Of a stretch of DNA of 64,000 nucleotides, positions 551 to 48,891 are shown piece by piece (position 1 is the stretch's first letter; the number at the start of each line of letters is the position of its first letter). The notes below the pieces were generated by a model. It saw only the letters and a list, made by a program, of their open reading frames with translations, had not been told where the DNA came from and ran no database searches. The translations under genes and the position numbers were made by a program. Source of the DNA: Styela clava (lineage: Eukaryota; Chordata; Ascidiacea; Stolidobranchia; Styelidae). The stretch spans positions 18,610,974-18,674,973 of the forward strand of contig NC_135259.1 in assembly GCF_964204865.1 (NCBI RefSeq), given 5' to 3'.

Positions 551-866
551 ACTTTTCTTCAAACAAAGATCAGGTAGGTCAGTTTTAGTTTTGAAACGTC
601 AGAAAGATAATGGTGAAGCTTTACTCTTTAGGCTGTATTTCTCGAGTGACTAAAGAATATATTACCTTAACAAAAACTTTCCAGAATGTGATTAGTGGGG
701 TTTAACCTGATAATTTATCGATTTAACTGTTGTAGTTGTTAAGGAGGATGATCGTAAAGATGCATGCAAATATGGGAATGTCACGAGTACAATAATATAA
801 CAGCACAACACTTTCACCTAACTTCAAGCCCGTGTCATTCTTTGAGATTAACGGTTAATAAGACAC
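551..866. other. Spacer between Glu-TTC and Ile (representative)
   Basis: This 316-bp spacer separates the convergent Glu-TTC (+) and Ile (-) genes. After the Glu terminator I see no gene or convincing motif. The LINE inserted in the equivalent spacer after the Glu-TTC copy at 26074, at the sequence CTAAAGAATA (here about 644-653). Equivalent spacers elsewhere hold the same sequence. Confidence 0.7.
553..556 (+). terminator. Pol III TTTT terminator of tRNA-Glu-TTC (representative)
   Basis: A T4 run lies 2 bases past the discriminator base, where RNA polymerase III normally stops. The same ACTTTTCT context follows every Glu-TTC copy in the window. The other three loci of the standard unit lack a T4 run this close. 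Confidence 0.85.
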
Positions 867-940
867 TGGCCAGTACGGGGATCGAACCCGCGACATTCGC
901 GTTAGTAGCACGACGCTCTAACCAACTGAGCTAACCGGCC
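867..940 (-). tRNA. tRNA-Ile body with ACT anticodon
   Basis: The 74-nt body is that of animal tRNA-Ile-AAT: acceptor GGCCGGT/ACTGGCC, canonical box A and box B (GGTTCGATCCC), anticodon stem TCGTG/CGCGA. The loop reads CTACTAA instead of CTAATAA, so the anticodon is ACT, which would read AGU (serine) rather than AUU. Copies at 4717, 8571 and 10224 share the change. The gene is either an anticodon-shifted tRNA or a nonfunctional variant. No T4 terminator lies nearby; the 3' flank reads GTGTCTTATTAACC. Confidence 0.8.
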
Positions 941-1387
941 ATATGTTCTATTCAATATACTCAGCCAATTTCATTAAGACTCTTACAGTAATTGTCTTCA
1001 AAAAGGAAGTTGTGAAATGTTATTTTTTTAACTAAGAAAGTACTTTTCTCACACGAGTCATAAGCGCTGATAGGAAAGTACTGAAATCGACGTTGGGCTA
1101 TTCCTTGTGGAAAAGTGGAATTCGTCTAAGCATATAGAGTGAGGGAGAAGTTTTTCATTTGATATTTTAGTCACCTTGGATTAATTGTGTGAAGAAACAG
1201 TAGAGGAACGAGATAGCATCTTTCAGTTACGAAGTACTAAATTCTGTCAGCGACATTTGTTTTTGTAGTATCTGTTTGACTCTAGGAAACAGAAATTAAA
1301 GATAGACTTGCTATTCCTTAATATTAAATGGATTTCATCCGAGGGAACACACAGATAGAATGGATTCATTTTTTAAATAATAGACAG
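941..1387. other. Spacer between Ile and Asn (representative, long form)
   Basis: This 447-bp spacer has no gene I can support. It holds two copies of GAAAGTACT about 50 bases apart. Short minus-strand reading frames here (60-72 codons in some copies) look accidental. A 276-bp compact form occurs after the Ile copies at 13537, 15046, 17048 and 18532. Confidence 0.7.
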
Positions 1388-1479
1388 CGTCCCTGGGTGG
1401 GCTTGAACCACCAACCTTTCGGTACCCATCAGTATAAGAGGTAACAGCCGAACGCGCTGACCGATTGCGCCACAGAGAC
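1388..1479 (-). tRNA. tRNA-Asn-GTT: tRNA-Asn (GTT) with 18-nt intron, reference copy
   Basis: The 92-nt gene matches animal tRNA-Asn: acceptor GTCTCTG/CAGGGAC with discriminator G, D stem GCGC/GCGC, T stem GGTGG/CCACC and box B GGTTCAAGCCC. The anticodon arm is TTCGG-CTGTTA, then 18 extra bases, then A-CCGAA. Removing them restores loop CTGTTAA with anticodon GTT, so they form an intron at the canonical 37/38 position. Within the precursor UACC can pair with GGUA, giving an extended helix of the kind the tRNA splicing endonuclease recognises. No T4 run follows closely. Confidence 0.9.
1424..1441 (-). other. tRNA-Asn intron (representative)
   Basis: These 18 bases (CCTCTTATACTGATGGGT on the minus strand) lie between anticodon-loop positions 37 and 38. 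The position is canonical for nuclear tRNA introns and the segment is present in all 30 Asn copies. Confidence 0.85.
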
Positions 1480-4400: not shown

Positions 4401-4716
4401 ACTTTTCTTCAAACAAAGATCAGGTAGGTCAGTTTTAGTTTTGAAACGTCAGAAAGATAATGGTGAAGCTTTACTCTTTAGGCTGTATTTCTCGAGTGAC
4501 TAAAGAATATATTACCTTAACAAAAACTTTCCAGAATGTGATTAGTGGGGTTTAACCTGATAATTTATCGATTTAACTGTTGTAGTTGTTAAGGAGGATG
4601 ATCGTAAAGATGCATGCAAATATGGGAATGTCACGAGTACAATAATATAACAGCACAACACTTTCACCTAACTTCAAGCCCGTGTCATTCTTTGAGATTA
4701 ACGGTTAATAAGACAC

Positions 4717-4790
4717 TGGCCAGTACGGGGATCGAACCCGCGACATTCGCGTTAGTAGCACGACGCTCTAACCAACTGAGCTAACCGGCC
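4717..4790 (-). tRNA. tRNA-Ile body with ACT anticodon
   Basis: Same ACT-anticodon variant as at 867, from which it was duplicated within the 3.85-kb block. Confidence 0.8.
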
Positions 4791-5237
4791 ATATGTTCTA
4801 TTAAATATACTCAGCCAATTTCATTAAGACTCTTACAGTAATTGTCTTCAAAAAGGAAGTTGTGAAATGTTATTTTTTTAACTAAGAAAGTACTTTTCTC
4901 ACACGAGTCAAAAGCGCTGATAGGAAAGTACTGAAATCGACGTTGGGCTATTCCTTGTGGAAAAGTGGAATTCGTCTAAGCATATAGAGTGAGGGAGAAG
5001 TTTTTCATTTGATATTTTAGTCACCTTGGATTAATTGTGTGAAGAAACAGTAGAGGAACGAGATAGCATCTTTCAGTTACGAAGTACTAAATTCTGTCAG
5101 CGACATTTGTTTTTGTAGTATCTGTTTGACTCTAGGAAACAGAAATTAAAGATAGACTTGCTATTCCTTAATATTAAATGGATTTCATCCGAGGGAACAC
5201 ACAGATAGAATGGATTCATTTTTTAAATAATAGACAG

Positions 5238-8254: not shown

Positions 8255-8570
8255 ACTTTTCTTCAAACAAAGATCAGGTAGGTCAGTTTTAGTTTTGAAA
8301 CGTCAGAAAGATAATGGTGAAGCTTTACTCTTTAGGCTGTATTTCTCGAGTGACTAAAGAATATATTACCTTAACAAAAACTTTCCAGAATGTGATTAGT
8401 GGGGTTTAACCTGATAATTTATCGATTTAACTGTTGTAGTTGTTAAGGAGGATGATCGTAAAGATGCATGCAAATATGGGAATGTCACGAGTACAATAAT
8501 ATAACAGCACAACACTTTCACCTAACTTCAAGCCCGTGTCATTCTTTGAGATTAATGGTTAATAAGACAC

Positions 8571-8644
8571 TGGCCAGTACGGGGATCGAACCCGCGACAT
8601 TCGCGTTAGTAGCACGACGCTCTAACCAACTGAGCTAACCGGCC
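8571..8644 (-). tRNA. tRNA-Ile body with ACT anticodon
   Basis: ACT loop as at 867. The upstream flank differs by one base (CACATG for CATATG). Confidence 0.8.
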
Positions 8645-9091
8645 ACATGTTCTATTCAATATACTCAGCCAATTTCATTAAGACTCTTACAGTAATTGTC
8701 TTCAAAAAGGAAGTTGTGAAATGTTATTTTTTTAACTAAGAAAGTACTTTTCTCACACGAGTCAAAAGCGCTGATAGGAAAGTACTGAAATCGCCGTTGG
8801 GCTATTCCTTGTGGAAAAGTGGAATTCGTCTAAGCATATAGAGTGAGGGAGAAGTTTTTCATTTGATATTTTAGTCACCTTGGATTAATTGTGTGAAGAA
8901 ACAGTAGAGGAACGAGATAGCATCTTTCAGTTACGAAGTACTAAATTCTGTCAGCGACATTTGTTTTTGTAGTATCTGTTTGACTCTAGGAAACAGAAAT
9001 TAAAGATAGACTTGCTATTCCTTAATATTAAATGGATTTCATCCGAGGGAACACACAGATAGAATGGATTCATTTTTTAAATAATAGACAG

Positions 9092-9907: not shown

Positions 9908-10223
9908 ACTTTTCTTCAAACAAAGATCAGGTAGGTCAGTTTTAGTTTTGAAACGTCAGAAAGATAATGGTGAAGCTTTACTCTTTAGGCTGTATTTCTC
10001 GAGTGACTAAAGAATATACTACCTTAACAAAAACTTTCCAGAATGTGATTAGTGGGGTTTAACCTGATAATTTATCGATTTAACTGTTGTAGTTGTTAAG
10101 GAGGATGATCGTAATGATGCATGCAAATATGGGAATGTCACGATTACAATAATATAACAGCACAACACTTTCACCTAACTTCAAGCCCGTGTCATTCTTT
10201 GAGATTAACGGTTAATAAGACAC

Positions 10224-10297
10224 TGGCCAGTACGGGGATCGAACCCGCGACATTCGCGTTAGTAGCACGACGCTCTAACCAACTGAGCTAACCGGCC
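10224..10297 (-). tRNA. tRNA-Ile body with ACT anticodon
   Basis: Last copy in the window with the ACT anticodon; all later copies read AAT. Confidence 0.8.
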
Positions 10298-10744
10298 ATA
10301 TGTTCTATTCAATATACTCAGCCAATTTCATTAAGACTCTTACAGTAATTGTCTTCAAAAAGGAAGTTGTGAAATGTTATTTTTTTAACTAAGAAAGTAC
10401 TTTTCTCACACGAGTCAAAAGCGCTGATAGGAAAGTACTGAAATCGCCGTTGGGCTATTCCTTGTAGAAAAGTGGAATTCGTCTAAGCATATAGAGTGAG
10501 GGAGAAGTTTTTCATTCGATATTTTAGTCACCATGGATTAATTGTGTGAAGAAACAGTAGAGGAACGAGATAGCATCTTTCAGTTACGAAGTACTAAATT
10601 CTGTCAGCGACATTTGTTTTTGTAGTATCTGTTTGACTCTAGGAAACAGAAATTAAAGATAGACTTGCTATTCCTCAATATTAAATGGATTTCATCCGAG
10701 GGAACACACAGATAGAAAGGATTCATTTTTTAAATAATAGACAG

Positions 10745-26245: not shown

Positions 26246-26254
26246 TAAAGAATA
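26246..26254 (+). repeat. Target-site duplication, left (LINE I)
   Basis: TAAAGAATA precedes the LINE and recurs after its poly(A) tail at 31905-31913. The uninterrupted array site reads GACTAAAGAATATATT, so 9 bases were duplicated by target-primed reverse transcription. Confidence 0.9.
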
Positions 26255-26257
26255 GTC

Positions 26258-26374
26258 GGTAGAGCGTTGCACTACGAGGTGGCCGAGTGGTTAAGGCGAT
26301 GGACTGCTAATCCTAAACCTTACTATCTGTTAGTTGTGGTAGAGCGTTGGTTAAAGCGCCTGTCTGTCAAACAG
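26258..26374 (+). other. 5' UTR of LINE I built from tRNA 5'-half fragments
   Basis: Three tRNA-like pieces stand in a row. First is a D-arm piece (GTCGGTAGAGC). Second, at 26274-26313, is a tRNA-Ser-GCT 5' half ending just after the anticodon loop (GACTGCTAATCC), with canonical box A TGGCCGAGTGG at 26280-26290. Third, about 26346-26374, is a D-plus-anticodon arm like tRNA-Thr (GGTTAAAGCGCCTGTCT) with GTC in the anticodon place. GGTAGAGCGTTG occurs twice (26258 and 26338). None of the pieces derives from the Glu, Ile or Asn genes of this array. Box A without a following box B suggests a partial Pol III promoter; that is inference. Confidence 0.8.
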
Positions 26375-26375
26375 T

Positions 26376-27842
26376 ATGGATTACGCGAAAGCAGGCAGTG
26401 CAACAACAGGGAGAGAAGCAACAACCCGGGACTATTCTGCGGCTGTCGCATCGAACCCACCAGTAGAAACATCACCAGGAGAAGCAAGACCAAGAACGGT
26501 TTTCCTCAAAACGGACACGGAATTCACCTTCGCCTCAATAATGGAATTACTGAAAAACAATGAAAAAACTAAGGAATATACAAACGAAATTAAGGGGTTA
26601 TATGAGACCCGCAAGGGCCAATGGATTTTAACGTTTGCACCTACGGACGGTCCAAATAACAGCTGCAGGGAAAGTTTCCTGGAAGCTACACAAGGACAAA
26701 TTAAAACAGCAGAAGCACAAATCGCTGTACAAATGCCGAGCGATGCACCCGTAAGGATTTCAGTGAAGGATATACCTCACGAAATATCCTATGACAAAGC
26801 CGTTCATACGATCAACCAGCTGGGTTGTGGGACAGTAAAGAGTGCTATTAAGAATTGGCACAGAGGGACTGATGTATATAACGGCTACATAGCTTTCATA
26901 ATAGAGGGTTTTAAAAAGGAACGATTACCAGACTATGTAGTGTTCAAAGGCCTCAAATGTAAAACATATCTTCCGAAAGAACTATACGTTCCAAAATGTG
27001 GAAGATGTCTACAATCTGGACACACATTCATAGACTGTAATAACGAGCCTGTCTGCAGATATTGTAGACAGGCTGGACATTTACAAAAGGACTGCCAAAC
27101 AAAAGCTAGAGACTTTCCAGCCATAGGAAATTACACAAAAACCTGGACTTTTCCCAAACAAAGGAGGACGCAACCGATAATTCCTACAAATTCACCTAGC
27201 AAAACAAAACAAAACAATGGAAACACCAAGCAAAACCGACCGGTAATTACACCTAATCAGGTTAATTGCCAATCAACCGAAGAAATTACACCTACCAAGA
27301 ACAAACAGGAAACAACGCAAGGTGGCAAGGATAAATCCATCTCCGAATTTTCTCCGTCGGCCTCTGAACTACGTGAAATAAGTGACTGGTCGGAATGTGA
27401 AGATGTCGGAAACACAACAAGTCCGAGTCAAACCCCCCAAAAAGACGCGCAACTTGGAGAATCGCCCAAAGACGCACAACCTGGAAATACCCATCAAACA
27501 CCTAAACAACCGGAACCGAGCAGAAAACTGAAACAAACTTCGACCATCGGCAATACGCCTTTCCACCCTCCACCGAAAGGGAAGGCCTATGTTAAAGTCA
27601 TGGTCCATAAATATGAAGCGCACGACACAACAACGTCTTTATTTAGCGACGTTCCGGATGAAATTCTCTCTGCCCCAGCAGTTCTAGGAAATAACGAACA
27701 CATAGTAGATCTGACGGACGCAAACCTGGACAACTCCGACCTGAACAATAAAAGAAATAGAGAATCGTCATCGGAATCATCCTTTTCGGCTATAACAGAA
27801 ACAAAATTGACTGGAAAAAATAAAAAAGGAAAGCGTAAGTGA
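26376..27842 (+). CDS. LINE I ORF1 protein, zinc-knuckle nucleic-acid binding
   Basis: A 488-residue protein starting at the ATG two bases after the tRNA-like leader; an in-frame TAA at 26352-26354 supports this start. Residues of about 100-200 could be an RRM-like fold (inferred only from position and family habit). Two CCHC knuckles of type C-X2-C-X4-H-X4-C lie at 208-221 and 227-240 (CGRC...H...C and CRYC...H...C). The remainder is rich in Q, T, P, S and N and ends in a basic tail (GKNKKGKRK). ORF1 proteins of this kind coat the LINE RNA in the ribonucleoprotein. I see no long coiled coil, unlike mammalian L1 ORF1p. Frame is open throughout. Confidence 0.88.
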   Translation: MDYAKAGSATTGREATTRDYSAAVASNPPVETSPGEARPRTVFLKTDTEFTFASIMELLKNNEKTKEYTNEIKGLYETRKGQWILTFAPTDGPNNSCRESFLEATQGQIKTAEAQIAVQMPSDAPVRISVKDIPHEISYDKAVHTINQLGCGTVKSAIKNWHRGTDVYNGYIAFIIEGFKKERLPDYVVFKGLKCKTYLPKELYVPKCGRCLQSGHTFIDCNNEPVCRYCRQAGHLQKDCQTKARDFPAIGNYTKTWTFPKQRRTQPIIPTNSPSKTKQNNGNTKQNRPVITPNQVNCQSTEEITPTKNKQETTQGGKDKSISEFSPSASELREISDWSECEDVGNTTSPSQTPQKDAQLGESPKDAQPGNTHQTPKQPEPSRKLKQTSTIGNTPFHPPPKGKAYVKVMVHKYEAHDTTTSLFSDVPDEILSAPAVLGNNEHIVDLTDANLDNSDLNNKRNRESSSESSFSAITETKLTGKNKKGKRK

Positions 27843-27970: not shown

Positions 27971-30900
27971 ATGGCTAAGGTGAAGATTGTTTCCATGAAC
28001 GTAAATGGTCTACAACACCATAGATATGAATTGGACAAATTTATAGAAACGGATAAGCCGAATGTCCTTTGTATACAAGAGGCCCATAAGGTCGACAAGG
28101 CCCTCATGACCCAGTGGGCGAATGATAAAAAATATAATATATATTATAATACTCTGGATAGGAATGAAGGTTTCCATACCTCTTACAGGCAAGGCACGTT
28201 GATAATGGTTAAAGTTTGTGATACCCTATTGCCACCAACTTACACCACACATATCACACATCGGTGCGATAGTATAGAAATAGAAATGGACAAGCGGATC
28301 ATCAAGATATTCAATGTTTACGCCCCGGCGAAAAACGGCCCTCATAAAACGGAGTTCTACCAAAATCTCGCCAACATTCTAAGTAATTACTGCGAATCAA
28401 ATTACTTAATAATAGTCGGAGATTTCAATGCCGTCCTGGACATTCGTGACGTCACAAATGCCAACAACTTCAAAATGCGACCCCCTGAGAAAATCTTCCG
28501 AAAATTCGTCCTACAGAACAATATATTCGATACCTACCGTGCAAAATATCCAAACAAACAAATCTATACCTTCCACTTCAAATCGCAAGGACGGAGAATA
28601 GACCGGATATATAACTCGGCCAATGTAAATAGCATCATTTCGGACATAACCCATATACCCAACACTGTTTCGGATCACATACTATGCCCACAAATTACAC
28701 TAGAACAAACCAAAAAGGTTCGATGGGGCAAAGGAACGTGGCGCAATAACACCGCGCTATATAAGGACCCCACGTATATCACCATCATCCAAAATACATA
28801 TAAAGACGCACTCACGGATATCGAAAACTTTGATTACTTGTCGGACTGGTGGGACTATGTGAAAAAGAGGGTTAAAAAACAAACCATTGCCTACTCGAAA
28901 TTCCGGACACGTGACCACAATAATAGCTTAATGCAAATTCGAAAAAGATTTGATATACTAATCAATGAGGGGAAAGCGGAAAACATGATCGAAATCAAAA
29001 GGCTAAAATCGCAGATCGAGATAATTCAAGATGAACGAAACAAAAGGGACATACTAATGGCAAAAATGAAAAACCTTGAAGAAGGGGAAAGGCCCACCAA
29101 AACCTTTTATGAAAAAATCCGGCGCAGATCTAGGCAAACAACAATAGAAGAGCTGGTGACAAATGACCAAAATGTACAGACAAATCCCGGGGAGATCATA
29201 TCAATAGTAGAAAGTTTCTATAAGAACCTATGGGGCAAAGAGAATATAACGCAAGAACAATACCAAAATCGTTATCTAAACTTAATGGGCTCTTCTAAAA
29301 TTGCAGATGAGGATAATATTATACTAGAAAGCTATATCTCACAAGAAGAGGTATATAGGGCAATAAAATTTATGGGAAACGATAAATCCCCAGGATTTGA
29401 TGGTCTATCCAAAGAATTCTACCTGACCTTCTGGAACTCTATTAAAAAGCAATTTACTCAACTTATGAATAACATATTATATTTCGGCCAAATACCAAAA
29501 TCTGCTACCATAGCGAAAGTTAAATTAGTATACAAGAAGGGAGACAAAACAAATTTAAAAAATTGGAGGCCAATCACAACGCTCAATGCAGATTATAAAA
29601 TCCTATCAAGAATCCTTGTTAAACGATTAGAACCAGTACTAAACAAAATCATAAGTCCATCCCAGAAATGCGCACTCAAGCAAAGATGTATGGAAGATGT
29701 TCATTATAATATAGACGCTATAATTAGACACTGCAAAATGAAAAATATCCCCGGATCACTAATAATAATAGACAATCTTAAAGCTTTTGATAGAGTGAAT
29801 CATGACTTCTTATTTAAAATTTTACATCAAATTGGACTTGGAAATAGAATCTCAAAAGCAATTAAAAGCATGTATTACGGAATTAAAAGTCAGGTAGATG
29901 TAAACGGTAGACTCACGCAGGAAATCGATATAGGGCAAGGAATTAGGCAAGGATGCCCGTTAAGTATGCTTCTCTACGCCATCAATATAGAGCCCCTAGC
30001 AAGATCGGTACAATTAAATGCCAATATACATGGTATCCAACTGGGGAGATACGAGCATAAACTCGATCAGTTTGCTGATGATATCACGTTCGCAGTTAGA
30101 GATCAATTATCTATTACAGAAATCTTTCACGAGCTAGACAATTTCCATTTAGCAACAGGACAAAAAATAAATAAAGATAAGACCGAAATTCTCTGTATTA
30201 CAAAAGAATCGCATAATTTAGTGAACAATTCGCCACATGGGAACTACATAAAACGAAACACCATAATACTTGGAATACAATTTGGAAATATGGACTTAAA
30301 CAATATGTGGCAGGTAATCGAAAATAAGATGATACGAACACTAAATTACGTTAAGCTGCGAAACCTCACCTGGTATGGTAAACTGATATCAATCAACTCC
30401 ATGATTATGTCTGTCATAATCTTCCATACGAGAGTAAAGAGAATCCCGAAAACGTATATAAAGAAAATCGAGAGTGCGCTGTTTAAGTTCCTCTGGCACC
30501 CGCAAAAGATAGAGGCCATTAGCAGAAAATCGCTACAAAGAATGTGGAACGATGGTGGGATCAATATGATTGATGTTGATGCAAAAATAAAGGCATGTGC
30601 AGTGGAAAAAATGAGATACATCGTGGGTAACGAACCCCTAACTCAATTTTGGCAAATAGAGGCATTATACTCTTTGGGATCCAGAGTCAAGCAAATCAAC
30701 AAGGATAGATACACCAACTCAATGCCCCACAGCAATACTATTCCAGAGCAATGGGCATACATCCTCGACATCTATAAAGAATTGAATTTCTCGCAATCCA
30801 CCTGGGAGGTTGCAAGACATAAAGACCTGTACATGAAATTGAAGAACAACAGAACAGCCAAAGAAAAACAACAGCTGCTGAATGTGAATTGGGAAGAAGC

Positions 30901-31453
30901 TCACCTATTTAACCATGATTATAAAAATAAGTTTACTAACGCGGAACGAATAATCTCGTATCGCATTATAAGAGAGGGGTACATATTCGGCGATCGCTTG
31001 AGGGGAATGTCCCTCAGGTATGATGCTCTCGGAAACTTAAAAATATTAGGCTGCAAATTTTGCAAAGGGCCTGTAGACAATACAGGACATATAATTATAA
31101 ACTGTAAATCAACGAGGAAATATGCGGTAAAACTTTTAAAAATTCTTAACAGCGTACTAAGCAACTCCATCAAAATAACTCTAAAGGAAATATTCTACAA
31201 TAGTTACAGGGGGCATAACCGAATAGTAGTCACCAAATGTTATGTAATATGGAAAAAGAACTTAATTGGCACCAAAATAAGACTGGATATCCAAAATAAA
31301 TATTTGACCCCTATGGACGATGATATAATTTCAAAAACAATATCTCACTTTACGCAATTTTTAAACACAATGGAGAACACTTTTACTAACCTTAATTTTC
31401 TCGGAATAGTAAATAACTGGAAGGAGATCCTAAATGGATATTCAGCTACATAA
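27971..31453 (+). CDS. LINE I ORF2 protein, endonuclease and reverse transcriptase
   Basis: This 1160-residue protein nicks target DNA and copies the LINE RNA there. The APE endonuclease occupies residues 1 to about 240: N10/N12, E37 in CIQEAH, Y117 in NVYAP, D151/N153 in GDFNAV, D211 in RRIDRI, and S234-D235-H236. The reverse transcriptase spans about 465-850: D601 in IIIDNLKAFDRV, GIRQGCPLS at 657-665, and catalytic FADD at 701-704. A thumb-like region (WYGKLISINS) follows. A C-terminal finger C1028-X2-C1031-X8-H1040-X4-C1045 resembles the L1 cysteine motif. All catalytic residues I can place are present, and length fits full-length L1/Tx1 ORF2. No RNase H domain is apparent. Confidence 0.93.
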   Translation: MAKVKIVSMNVNGLQHHRYELDKFIETDKPNVLCIQEAHKVDKALMTQWANDKKYNIYYNTLDRNEGFHTSYRQGTLIMVKVCDTLLPPTYTTHITHRCDSIEIEMDKRIIKIFNVYAPAKNGPHKTEFYQNLANILSNYCESNYLIIVGDFNAVLDIRDVTNANNFKMRPPEKIFRKFVLQNNIFDTYRAKYPNKQIYTFHFKSQGRRIDRIYNSANVNSIISDITHIPNTVSDHILCPQITLEQTKKVRWGKGTWRNNTALYKDPTYITIIQNTYKDALTDIENFDYLSDWWDYVKKRVKKQTIAYSKFRTRDHNNSLMQIRKRFDILINEGKAENMIEIKRLKSQIEIIQDERNKRDILMAKMKNLEEGERPTKTFYEKIRRRSRQTTIEELVTNDQNVQTNPGEIISIVESFYKNLWGKENITQEQYQNRYLNLMGSSKIADEDNIILESYISQEEVYRAIKFMGNDKSPGFDGLSKEFYLTFWNSIKKQFTQLMNNILYFGQIPKSATIAKVKLVYKKGDKTNLKNWRPITTLNADYKILSRILVKRLEPVLNKIISPSQKCALKQRCMEDVHYNIDAIIRHCKMKNIPGSLIIIDNLKAFDRVNHDFLFKILHQIGLGNRISKAIKSMYYGIKSQVDVNGRLTQEIDIGQGIRQGCPLSMLLYAINIEPLARSVQLNANIHGIQLGRYEHKLDQFADDITFAVRDQLSITEIFHELDNFHLATGQKINKDKTEILCITKESHNLVNNSPHGNYIKRNTIILGIQFGNMDLNNMWQVIENKMIRTLNYVKLRNLTWYGKLISINSMIMSVIIFHTRVKRIPKTYIKKIESALFKFLWHPQKIEAISRKSLQRMWNDGGINMIDVDAKIKACAVEKMRYIVGNEPLTQFWQIEALYSLGSRVKQINKDRYTNSMPHSNTIPEQWAYILDIYKELNFSQSTWEVARHKDLYMKLKNNRTAKEKQQLLNVNWEEAHLFNHDYKNKFTNAERIISYRIIREGYIFGDRLRGMSLRYDALGNLKILGCKFCKGPVDNTGHIIINCKSTRKYAVKLLKILNSVLSNSIKITLKEIFYNSYRGHNRIVVTKCYVIWKKNLIGTKIRLDIQNKYLTPMDDDIISKTISHFTQFLNTMENTFTNLNFLGIVNNWKEILNGYSAT

Positions 31454-31876
31454 CGCAATCCACCATAAACAAAAGCATATCTGCCCAAGTGGACTCTGCA
31501 ATTTTATCCATTTTTTATGTCGGAAATACCATCACATATTAAGCGGACGTGATGAATCGGAAGCTTCACGGTGGATGTCATGCTGTGTGCGTGTTAAGCG
31601 TCACGCAGTATGTACGGAAGCCGGGGGGCGGAAGTTGAGCTATGCTATGCATGGTGCAGACGGAAGCCCTGGGCGAAAGTTATGCTGTGACATACAGTGT
31701 ATACCGAACCCCGGGGTGGAAGTTTGTGCTGTGCAATGGCGCGGCAGATACTGAAGCCTCCATAAGTTTATGACTGCTGCTTATGCAGTGGCATGCTTAT
31801 GAAGCGTTATACCGATATGACACGGATATGACGTGGCATTAGACACTGATCTGTGCCTTGGAAAATTCTGATCCGC
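31454..31876 (+). other. 3' UTR of LINE I with degenerate repeats
   Basis: From 31558 to about 31800 the UTR holds four to five degenerate repeats of roughly 43-57 bp beginning CGGAAGC or similar, at 31558, 31615, 31661, 31704 and 31751. Several contain GCTGTG or GCTATGC and a GGGCGGAAGTT-like core. It is much more GC-rich than the array. Such repeats may form the RNA structure recognised by the reverse transcriptase (inference). A 106-codon frame overlapping the ORF2 end lies here but looks accidental. Confidence 0.65.
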
Positions 31877-31904
31877 AAAAAAAAAAAAAAAAAAAAAAAA
31901 AAAA
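31877..31904 (+). other. Poly(A) tail of LINE I
   Basis: 28 consecutive A residues end the element, as expected for poly(A)-primed target insertion. Confidence 0.9.
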
Positions 31905-31913
31905 TAAAGAATA
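31905..31913 (+). repeat. Target-site duplication, right (LINE I)
   Basis: TAAAGAATA, identical to 26246-26254. The array sequence resumes directly as TATTACTTTAAC. Confidence 0.9.
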
Positions 31914-37521: not shown

Positions 37522-37524
37522 GTC

Positions 37525-37641
37525 GGTAGAGCGTTGCACTACGAGGTGGCCGAGTGGTTAAGGCGATGGACTGCTAATCCTAAACCTTACTATCTGTTAG
37601 TTGTGGTAGAGCGTTGGTTAAAGCGCCTGTCTGTCAAACAG
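37525..37641 (+). other. 5' UTR of LINE II built from tRNA 5'-half fragments
   Basis: Same order of D-arm piece, Ser-GCT half (37541-37580) and Thr-like arm as in LINE I. Confidence 0.8.
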
Positions 37642-37642
37642 T

Positions 37643-48322: not shown

Positions 48323-48430
48323 CACTTTACGCAATTTTTAAACACAATGGAGAACACTTTTACTAACCTTAATTTTCTCGGAATAGTAAATAACTGGAAG
48401 GAGATCCTAAATGGATATTCAGCTACATAA
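48323..48430 (+). pseudogene. ORF2 C-terminal remnant of LINE III
   Basis: Encodes only the last 36 residues of ORF2 plus stop, with no start of its own. It lies beyond the zinc finger, so no functional domain remains. Confidence 0.85.
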
Positions 48431-48851
48431 CGCAATCCACCATAAACAAAAGCATATCTGCCCAAGTGGACTCTGCAATTTTATCCATTTTTTATGTCGG
48501 AAATACCATCACATATTAAGCGGACGTGATGAATCGGAAGCTTCACGGTGGATGTCATGCTGTGTGCGTGTTAAGCGTCACGCAGTATGTACGGAAGCCG
48601 GGGGGCGGAAGTTGAGCTATGCTATGCATGGTGCAGACGGAAGCCCTGGGCGAAAGTTATGCTGTGACATACAGTGTATACCGAACCCCGGGGTGGAAGT
48701 TTGTGCTGTGCAATGGCGCGGCAGATACTGAAGCCTCCATAAGTTTATGACTGCTGCTTATGCAGTGGCATGCTTATGAAGCGTTATACCGATATGACAC
48801 GGATATGACGTGGCATTAGACACTGATCTGTGCCTTGGAAAATTCTGATCC

Positions 48852-48853
<2 letters not shown>

Positions 48854-48882
<29 letters not shown>
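48854..48882 (+). other. Poly(A) tail of LINE III
   Basis: 29 A residues, one more than the other two copies. Confidence 0.9.
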
Positions 48883-48884
<2 letters not shown>

Positions 48885-48891
48885 AAGAATA
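48883..48891 (+). repeat. Right target-site duplication retained by LINE III
   Basis: TAAAGAATA; the left partner has been deleted. Confidence 0.88.

What the first reader, a model, noticed from the sequence alone, without database searches (positions are those of the whole stretch)
26255..26375. LINE leader assembled from tRNA 5' halves
The whole 5' UTR is a row of tRNA pieces: a D-arm piece, a Ser-GCT 5' half cut just past the anticodon loop, and a Thr-like D-plus-anticodon arm that ends 2 bases before the ORF1 start codon. GGTAGAGCGTTG is repeated. None comes from the tRNAs of this array, so it is not local carry-over. tRNA heads are common in SINEs but not usual for LINEs. It may supply a box A promoter, serve as a targeting signal, or record template switching onto tRNA halves.
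Basis: partly seen in the sequence, partly recalled or inferred. Interest (0 to 1): 0.78.

Follow-up and report, generated by a model that had tools for sequence, protein, structure and literature searches.

The report
LINE leader layered from target tRNA genes
A jumping gene that inserts itself into tRNA genes carries, at its front end, a stack of front pieces of different tRNA genes that look like leftovers of places where its ancestors sat, so the front end reads like a travel log.

Summary
The 121-base leader (26255-26375) of an L1-like LINE contains exact pieces of tRNA-Lys, tRNA-Ser-GCT, tRNA-Thr and one more D-arm: 84 bases lie in 12-mers shared with this genome's tRNA genes, against at most 12 elsewhere in the LINE and 14 in shuffles. 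It is a family trait: an independent copy in a tRNA-Val gene has the same leader. The closest relatives (77-81%) have an ordinary leader. A second family has one copy in tRNA-Ile and three elsewhere carrying the Ile piece; in a third, two copies start with U2 snRNA. Best explanation: the leader is a layered record of earlier target genes. A copy inside a small-RNA gene is transcribed from within that gene's 5' part, and the next copy keeps the piece; if the next target matches a carried piece, the cDNA joins it in register. RNA-level joining to tRNA or U2 fragments is the main rival. No RNA data were available.

The parts
26246..26254 (+). left copy of target site duplication TAAAGAATA (spacer of the tRNA array, not in a tRNA gene)
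   Evidence: uninterrupted site 29 times in the window
26255..26273 (+). piece 1: tRNA-Lys, D-loop to base 33 just before the anticodon (one mismatch here, none in copy C4)
   Evidence: 15 nt exact here, 19 nt exact in C4; numbering
26273..26313 (+). piece 2: tRNA-Ser-GCT 5' part, nt 1-41, exact to a variant Ser gene of the Ser/Ala array (its first T may instead be the last base of piece 1)
26314..26335 (+). unassigned leader stretch between tRNA pieces; copy C13b begins inside it
   Evidence: the genome search for its origin did not complete
26336..26350 (+). piece 3: D-arm piece GTGGTAGAGCGTTGG (11 nt shared with Ala/Gln, overlapping 13 nt shared with Lys); source gene unresolved
   Evidence: Lys overlap by inspection
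26346..26365 (+). piece 4: tRNA-Thr-AGT, D-loop to base 33 just before the anticodon; its first 5 bases are shared with piece 3
26366..26375 (+). last 10 leader bases GTCAAACAGT: remnant of the ordinary leader of the relatives, or an altered Thr anticodon arm
   Evidence: by eye
26376..27842 (+). ORF1, 488 aa, CCHC zinc-knuckle match just below Pfam's cut-off
27971..31453 (+). ORF2, 1160 aa, AP-type endonuclease + reverse transcriptase, best match among solved structures human L1 ORF2p
31454..31904 (+). 3' UTR and poly(A) (A run 31877-31904)
31905..31913 (+). right copy of target site duplication
37522..37642 (+). same leader in a tandem segmental duplicate (offset 11267); not independent
48323..48888 (+). 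3' fragment of the same insertion in a third, internally deleted duplicate (same 3' flank)

Best explanation
The leader is a layered record of small-RNA genes that the lineage occupied before. The LINE inserts into tRNA genes, mostly at the anticodon arm (shown). A copy lying there is transcribed from a start inside the 5' part of the host gene, about 17-41 bases upstream of the junction (inferred), so its RNA begins with that piece; reverse transcription at the next target adds the piece permanently (copies with the piece outside the gene: shown). Repeating this at a Thr gene, a Lys- or Ala-like gene, a Ser gene and a Lys gene replaced the ordinary leader still seen in the closest relatives. 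When the next target is homologous to a carried piece, the cDNA end anneals to it and joins in register (inferred from C9ser in tRNA-Ser and C9b in tRNA-Lys).
For: Same leader in an independent copy in a tRNA-Val gene (C4). 8 of 8 independent insertions with a readable end lie among tRNA genes, 7 of 8 inside one. Ends of carried pieces (nt 33 Thr, 33 Lys, 41 Ser, 32 Ile) fall in the same interval as last bases before inserted elements (nt 30 Lys, 30 Glu, 32 Ile, 35 Cys, 41 Ser), though two of these (Ile, Ser) are the same base as the matching piece. Second family: one copy in tRNA-Ile (duplication GCGTCGTGC), three elsewhere with the Ile piece before the same leader, two of them back to the D-loop. 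Third family: two copies starting at U2 nt 1 and 2, ending at nt 33 and 35. Relatives C1 and C6:288 have a different leader, with no 11-mer of the tRNA set in the 150 bases before the ATG. The copies give a tree without conflicting sites in which C9ser (3 differences from W1) groups inside copies that already had the Ser piece. R2Bm RNA keeps 27 nt of upstream rRNA and its cDNA could hybridise to the target (PMC6895275, passages).
Against: No transcript was examined. Ser and U2 pieces start at or near nt 1 of the mature RNA, which joining to an RNA fragment also predicts. C9ser, the one copy in a Ser gene, is not the donor, so no donor of W1's pieces was caught in place. 26314-26335 and the source of piece 3 are unexplained. 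Three of five second-family copies and both third-family copies lie outside recognised tRNA or U2 genes; no copy inside a U2 gene was seen. The piece-4 start is uncertain because its first bases are shared with piece 3. A ninth, 98% copy on C18 has lost both ends and its site cannot be read; no tRNA was noticed beside it. Two second-family copies (C6a, C6b) show no readable target duplication.
Confidence: 0.62

Rival explanations
1. RNA-level joining: during or before target-primed reverse transcription the LINE RNA was joined to tRNA halves and U2 fragments by template switching or by RNA ligation (RtcB); later insertions into Ser and Ile genes were guided by the acquired homology.
For: Ser piece starts at nt 1 or 2 and U2 pieces at nt 1, 2 or 4. 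Human L1 makes chimeras with tRNA halves (n = 21) and other small RNAs (PMC13174262, section 11). The tree places the Ser piece before the Ser-gene insertion C9ser.
Against: The Lys and Ile pieces start in the D-loop at about nt 14-16, not at nt 1 as tRNA 5' halves do (recalled); W1 and C4 start at the same base, to within one, at unrelated targets. Human tRNA chimeras are predominantly antisense; all pieces here are sense. The family independently inserts into Ser and Lys genes, and the second family into Ile.
Confidence: 0.24
2. The tRNA pieces were kept because they supply a Pol III (box A) promoter for the LINE.
For: One full box-A-like motif TGGCCGAGTGG in the Ser piece, at 26280.
Against: No box B in the leader; 20 runs of four or more T in the element, the first about 125 bases into ORF1, where Pol III would be expected to stop (recalled); the Lys, D-arm and Thr pieces lack the start of box A; a third family uses U2, a Pol II gene (recalled), in the same way.
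Confidence: 0.06
3. The stack is a locus-private accident or a chance resemblance.
For: None found.
Against: C4 has the same leader at an unrelated site; C9ser shares it from piece 2 on; shuffles and the rest of the LINE never come near.
Confidence: 0.01

Closest known systems
LINEs with AP-type endonuclease (human L1; Tx1 clade; Keno for U2 snRNA, Dewa for the tRNA-Leu spacer)
   Same: endonuclease and RT in ORF2, poly(A), short target duplications; the Tx1 clade is named among the target-specific groups, Keno and Dewa among LINEs of multicopy small-RNA genes (PMC3706591 and PMC4640811, passages)
   Different: here insertions fall inside several different tRNA genes, mostly at the anticodon arm, and the leader is made of target-gene pieces; Tx1 membership not tested
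tRNA-gene-specific LINEs near NeSL (NeSL-1_TV tRNA-Pro, LIN15_SM tRNA-Arg, LIN25_SM tRNA-Glu)
   Same: insertion in tRNA genes (PMC4640811, passages)
   Different: they belong to a lineage with restriction-like endonuclease (PMC4640811, passages); this element has an AP-type endonuclease and hits several tRNA species
R2 LINEs
   Same: RNA can retain 27 nt of upstream target rRNA; cDNA could hybridise to the upstream target (PMC6895275, passages)
   Different: R2 has one fixed target and cuts its RNA out of the rRNA with a ribozyme (PMC3414825, passages), so pieces would not pile up
Human L1 chimeras and promoter co-option (tRNA halves, 28S; RAP1GDS1)
   Same: small-RNA sequence at the LINE 5' end; a 5'-damaged L1 expressed from a host promoter (PMC13174262, sections 11 and 14)
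   Different: few loci per new RNA type (up to 21); here layers accumulate in a mobile family and match its target genes
tRNA- or snRNA-headed SINEs
   Same: head from a small-RNA gene (PMC13174262 section 17, mentions tRNA and U1/U2)
   Different: this element codes for its own proteins, has several stacked 5' parts and no box B in the leader

Membership tests
L1-type LINE (AP endonuclease) | AP-type endonuclease N-terminal to reverse transcriptase in ORF2 | tested here: met
   PF03372 E 5.3e-10, PF00078 E 6.2e-29; human L1 ORF2p E 2.5e-65, R2 E 1.1e-24
L1-type LINE (AP endonuclease) | poly(A) 3' end and short target site duplication | tested here: met
Tx1 clade (Keno-like) | RT phylogeny within Tx1 | not tested
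   no reference LINE set in the tools
Strictly site-specific LINE | one fixed target sequence | tested here: not met
   Ser, Lys (2 kinds), Val (2), Cys and Glu genes and one spacer; first base after poly(A) from nt 24 to 36
tRNA-gene-targeting LINE | insertions inside tRNA genes | tested here: met
   7 of 8 independent insertions with a readable end
tRNA-derived SINE | tRNA head with boxes A and B, no ORFs | tested here: not met
   no box B in leader; two long ORFs
L1/tRNA-half chimera | piece starts at tRNA nt 1 and ends at the anticodon loop | tested here: inconclusive
   Ser nt 1-41; Lys and Thr start at nt 14-15 and end at nt 33

The most novel reading that the evidence does not exclude
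Leader turnover by serial capture of target-gene 5' parts is a standing way of life of this LINE group: the target gene supplies the start of transcription, lost leaders are replaced this way, and the carried pieces then act as a set of homology arms that steer later insertions back into Ser, Lys, Ile or U2 genes.
Probability: 0.35. Interest if true: 0.87.

Novelty: new variant of a known kind. Interest (0 to 1): 0.75.

Why it matters
The 5' UTR of L1 is described as evolving in jumps without transitional forms, with the mechanism only speculated on (PMC13174262, section 22). Here layers are still readable and can be compared with actual insertion sites in tRNA genes, so the question becomes testable. 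It would also link target choice and promoter supply in one cycle, and show an AP-endonuclease LINE that uses the anticodon arm of several tRNA genes.

Tried and rejected
Rejected: C9ser as the donor of the Ser piece. It is 3 differences from W1 while W1 and C4, which both have the piece, differ by 32; only a root on C9ser's own short branch, with a very uneven clock, would save it. Its gene starts with G where the piece fits a T variant, though that T may belong to the Lys piece. Rejected: leader as a structured tRNA mimic (fold z -0.04; Rfam tRNA 18.5 bits against a cut-off of 29). Led nowhere: relatives of ORF2 in viral contigs, Ser half in viral contigs, bacterial promoter scan (not suited). 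The first chance test used tRNA sequences broken into lines and its rest-of-LINE control failed (maximum 121); one search dropped every sequence; one search is the valid version. One of its 85 tRNA sequences is the C4 junction itself; by inspection it adds no 12-mer of the leader. A 98% ORF2 copy on C18 has neither end readable and was left out of the insertion count. C10:11710092 was not fetched. Seven U2-headed places were seen only as about 200-280 bases, so that they are LINE copies was not checked beyond leader resemblance. The stretch fetched for the 3' flank of C6b (L088) turned out to be ORF1-like sequence, so its target duplication was not seen. The 5' stretch fetched for C5:18041280 (L075) did not reach a recognisable leader, and C16:16900505 (L077, L078) belongs to a family inserted in a satellite-like repeat, without tRNA pieces noticed. 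Of 13 more distant loci (79-90% 3' UTR) given a locus, 12 were scanned and 2 had tRNA genes nearby; L058 was not scanned. Papers: no LINE leader built of target-gene pieces was seen in the listings of searches or in the texts opened; one search found no paper.

Full report
Check of the observation. The LINE begins at 26255 and ends in a poly(A) run at 31904, between two copies of TAAAGAATA; the uninterrupted site occurs 29 times in the window. Its leader was compared with 85 tRNA sequences predicted by ARAGORN in this window and in the stretches fetched from the same genome (90 predicted, 5 dropped as overlong). Exact matches are Lys (15 nt, 19 in copy C4), Ser-GCT (41 nt), a D-arm (11 nt) and Thr-AGT (20 nt). 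84 of 121 bases lie in shared 12-mers; 270 windows of the rest of the LINE reach at most 12, 2000 shuffles at most 14, the antisense leader 0. No piece hit the tRNAs of the window's own array at E <= 1. The second copy in the window is a tandem duplicate with one difference over 5851 bases; a third is a deleted duplicate with the same 3' flank.

Other copies. The genome (376.6 Mb) is held. A search with the ORF1 start scored 20 of 20 candidates and gave 21 rows: six at 99-100% (W1, its duplicate W2, C9ser, C13b, C4, C9b), three rows from two relatives at 77% (C1) and 79-81% (C6:288), and twelve at 66-71%. A search with the 3' UTR scored 40 of 188 candidates; 17 of its 41 rows are at 99-100%. 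By flanks I count these 17 rows as 8 independent insertions: the window one (3 rows), C9ser, C9b, C4, C13b, C5, a Lys-TTT one copied with its surroundings (5 rows) and a Cys one likewise (4 rows). In all 8, further tRNA genes are predicted in the fetched flanks. Seven are inside a tRNA gene: Ser-GCT (duplication TAATCC), Lys-CTT (GCGTTGG), Val-TAC (long, imperfect), Val-CAC (3' joint only), Cys-GCA (TCGACTGC), Lys-TTT (about TTTAAATCCAA) and Glu-TTC (5' joint only; the 3' side is damaged) (by inspection). The window insertion lies in an array spacer. In anticodon-anchored numbering the first base after poly(A) is nt 24 (Lys), 28 (Cys), 32 (Val-TAC), 32-33 (Val-CAC) and 36 (Ser); the last base before the element is 30 (Lys), 30 (Glu), 35 (Cys) and 41 (Ser). 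The tRNA genes of the genome could not be counted (box-B search did not complete), so no exact probability is given; if tRNA clusters made up 1% of the genome (an assumption), 8 of 8 would have a chance of about 1e-16. Because only 40 of 188 candidates were scored, more insertions may exist.

Leaders of the copies. W1 and C4, at unrelated targets, have the whole stack and start at the same base to within one. C9ser sits in a tRNA-Ser gene and coincides with the leader from piece 2 on. C13b begins inside the unassigned stretch, in tRNA-Glu. C9b sits in tRNA-Lys and coincides from the 13-nt stretch GGTAGAGCGTTGG on. The five copies and W2 give site patterns without conflict: 16 sites separate W1, W2 and C9ser from the rest, 8 join C13b and C9b; W1 and C9ser differ at 3 of 5503 columns, W1 and C4 at 32. 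Unless the root lies on C9ser's own short branch, the Lys and Ser pieces shared by W1 and C4 are older than C9ser. So C9ser is best read as a later insertion into a tRNA-Ser gene by an element that already carried the Ser piece, joined in register by homology; C9b perhaps likewise at Lys. The nearest relatives C1 and C6:288 share a different leader that ends TCAACAAACATNATG; in the 150 bases before their ATG no 11-mer of the tRNA set occurs (whose set held partial tRNA sequences). The tRNA stack thus seems to have replaced an ordinary leader almost down to the start codon.

The same thing in other families. In a second family (about 56% identical ORF2) one copy lies in tRNA-Ile-AAT with duplication GCGTCGTGC. 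Three copies outside recognised tRNA genes carry the Ile sequence ending GAGCGTCGTGC directly before the same leader, two of them back to TTGGTTAG in the D-loop; only one of the three (C16) shows a clear target duplication, about ATATATGGGTT. A fifth copy is truncated and lies in a tRNA-Asp array. In a third family two copies start at U2 snRNA nt 1 and nt 2 and run to nt 33 and 35 before the LINE leader, each with its own target duplication outside U2. Seven further places among the fetched U2 hits have U2 from nt 1, 2 or 4 to nt 36-50 joined to other leaders; three fetched hits continue as U2 genes by eye. One of the seven has the C1/C6-type leader by eye. Five share one leader that contains a second, decayed U2 start further in (25 of 31 bases; 0 of 1000 shuffles as good, tested on one of the five); their ORFs were not examined. 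The U2 sequence downstream of Utopia insertions starts at nt 39, and Keno has the same 3' flank (PMC4640811, section 6).

How it most likely works. Shown: the pieces, the family-wide leader, insertion in tRNA genes, copies outside the genes that carry the pieces, and a different leader in the nearest relatives. Inferred: a copy in a small-RNA gene is transcribed from a start inside the gene's 5' part, so the RNA begins with about 17 to 41 bases of the gene, and the next insertion keeps them. Starts at about nt 14-16 for Lys and Ile, and perhaps Thr, fit a fixed RNA start better than tRNA halves, which start at nt 1 (recalled). U2 starts at nt 1 or 2 fit the U2 gene's own start. Inferred too: carried pieces help the cDNA pair with a homologous target, as proposed for R2Bm (PMC6895275, passages). 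Pol III is unlikely to make the whole RNA: no box B in the leader and 20 runs of four or more T, the first at 26500.

Against. No RNA data. The rival, joining at the RNA level, is supported by starts of the Ser and U2 pieces at or near nt 1, by the tree, in which the Ser piece precedes the only Ser-gene insertion seen, and by human L1 chimeras with tRNA halves (PMC13174262, section 11). 26314-26335 is unexplained. Three of five second-family copies lie outside recognised tRNA genes, so targeting is not strict in that family, and the 98% copy on C18 could not be placed. For these reasons I put the main reading at 0.62 and the RNA-level rival at 0.24 (before re-checking: 0.64 and 0.22).

Comparison. 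tRNA-gene-targeting LINEs, U2-targeting LINEs, R2 RNA with retained target sequence, and promoter co-option by a damaged human L1 are in print. A LINE leader made of stacked target-gene pieces was not seen in the listings of searches (one found no paper). I rate it a new variant of a known kind.

Noticed in passing
window 866-941, 4716-4791, 8570-8645, 10223-10298: Four tRNA genes on the minus strand, in the place of the array's tRNA-Ile, are called Ser with anticodon ACT by ARAGORN: possibly a tRNA-Ile body with a changed anticodon, kept in several array units.
   Followed up: no
window 1387-1479 and repeats: The array's 93-nt tRNA called '???' appears as tRNA-Asn-GTT when introns are allowed, so an intron-bearing tRNA-Asn.
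   Followed up: partly
window 24030-48079: Tandem segmental duplication with offset 11267 includes the LINE; one difference in the LINE stretch, so very recent.
   Followed up: partly
L089, L090, L094, L095, L096: Five places share a leader that begins with U2 sequence up to nt 38-40 and holds a second, decayed U2 start: another stacked leader.
   Followed up: partly
L030 (C4 copy): The Val-gene insertion has a long imperfect duplication (about 34 bp) whose left copy resembles Val-AAC and right copy Val-TAC, as if converted by a neighbour gene.
   Followed up: no
L086/L065 (C16 copy of the second family): 3' flank GGGTTCGAATCCC looks like a tRNA T-arm although ARAGORN finds no tRNA there.
   Followed up: no
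L041, L043, L044, L046, L047: Short TAATAA-like stretch between poly(A) and the Lys-TTT target, in all five copies.
   Followed up: no
window 26299-26310: The Ser piece brings an upstream ATG with a three-codon frame (ATGGACTGCTAA) ahead of ORF1.
   Followed up: no
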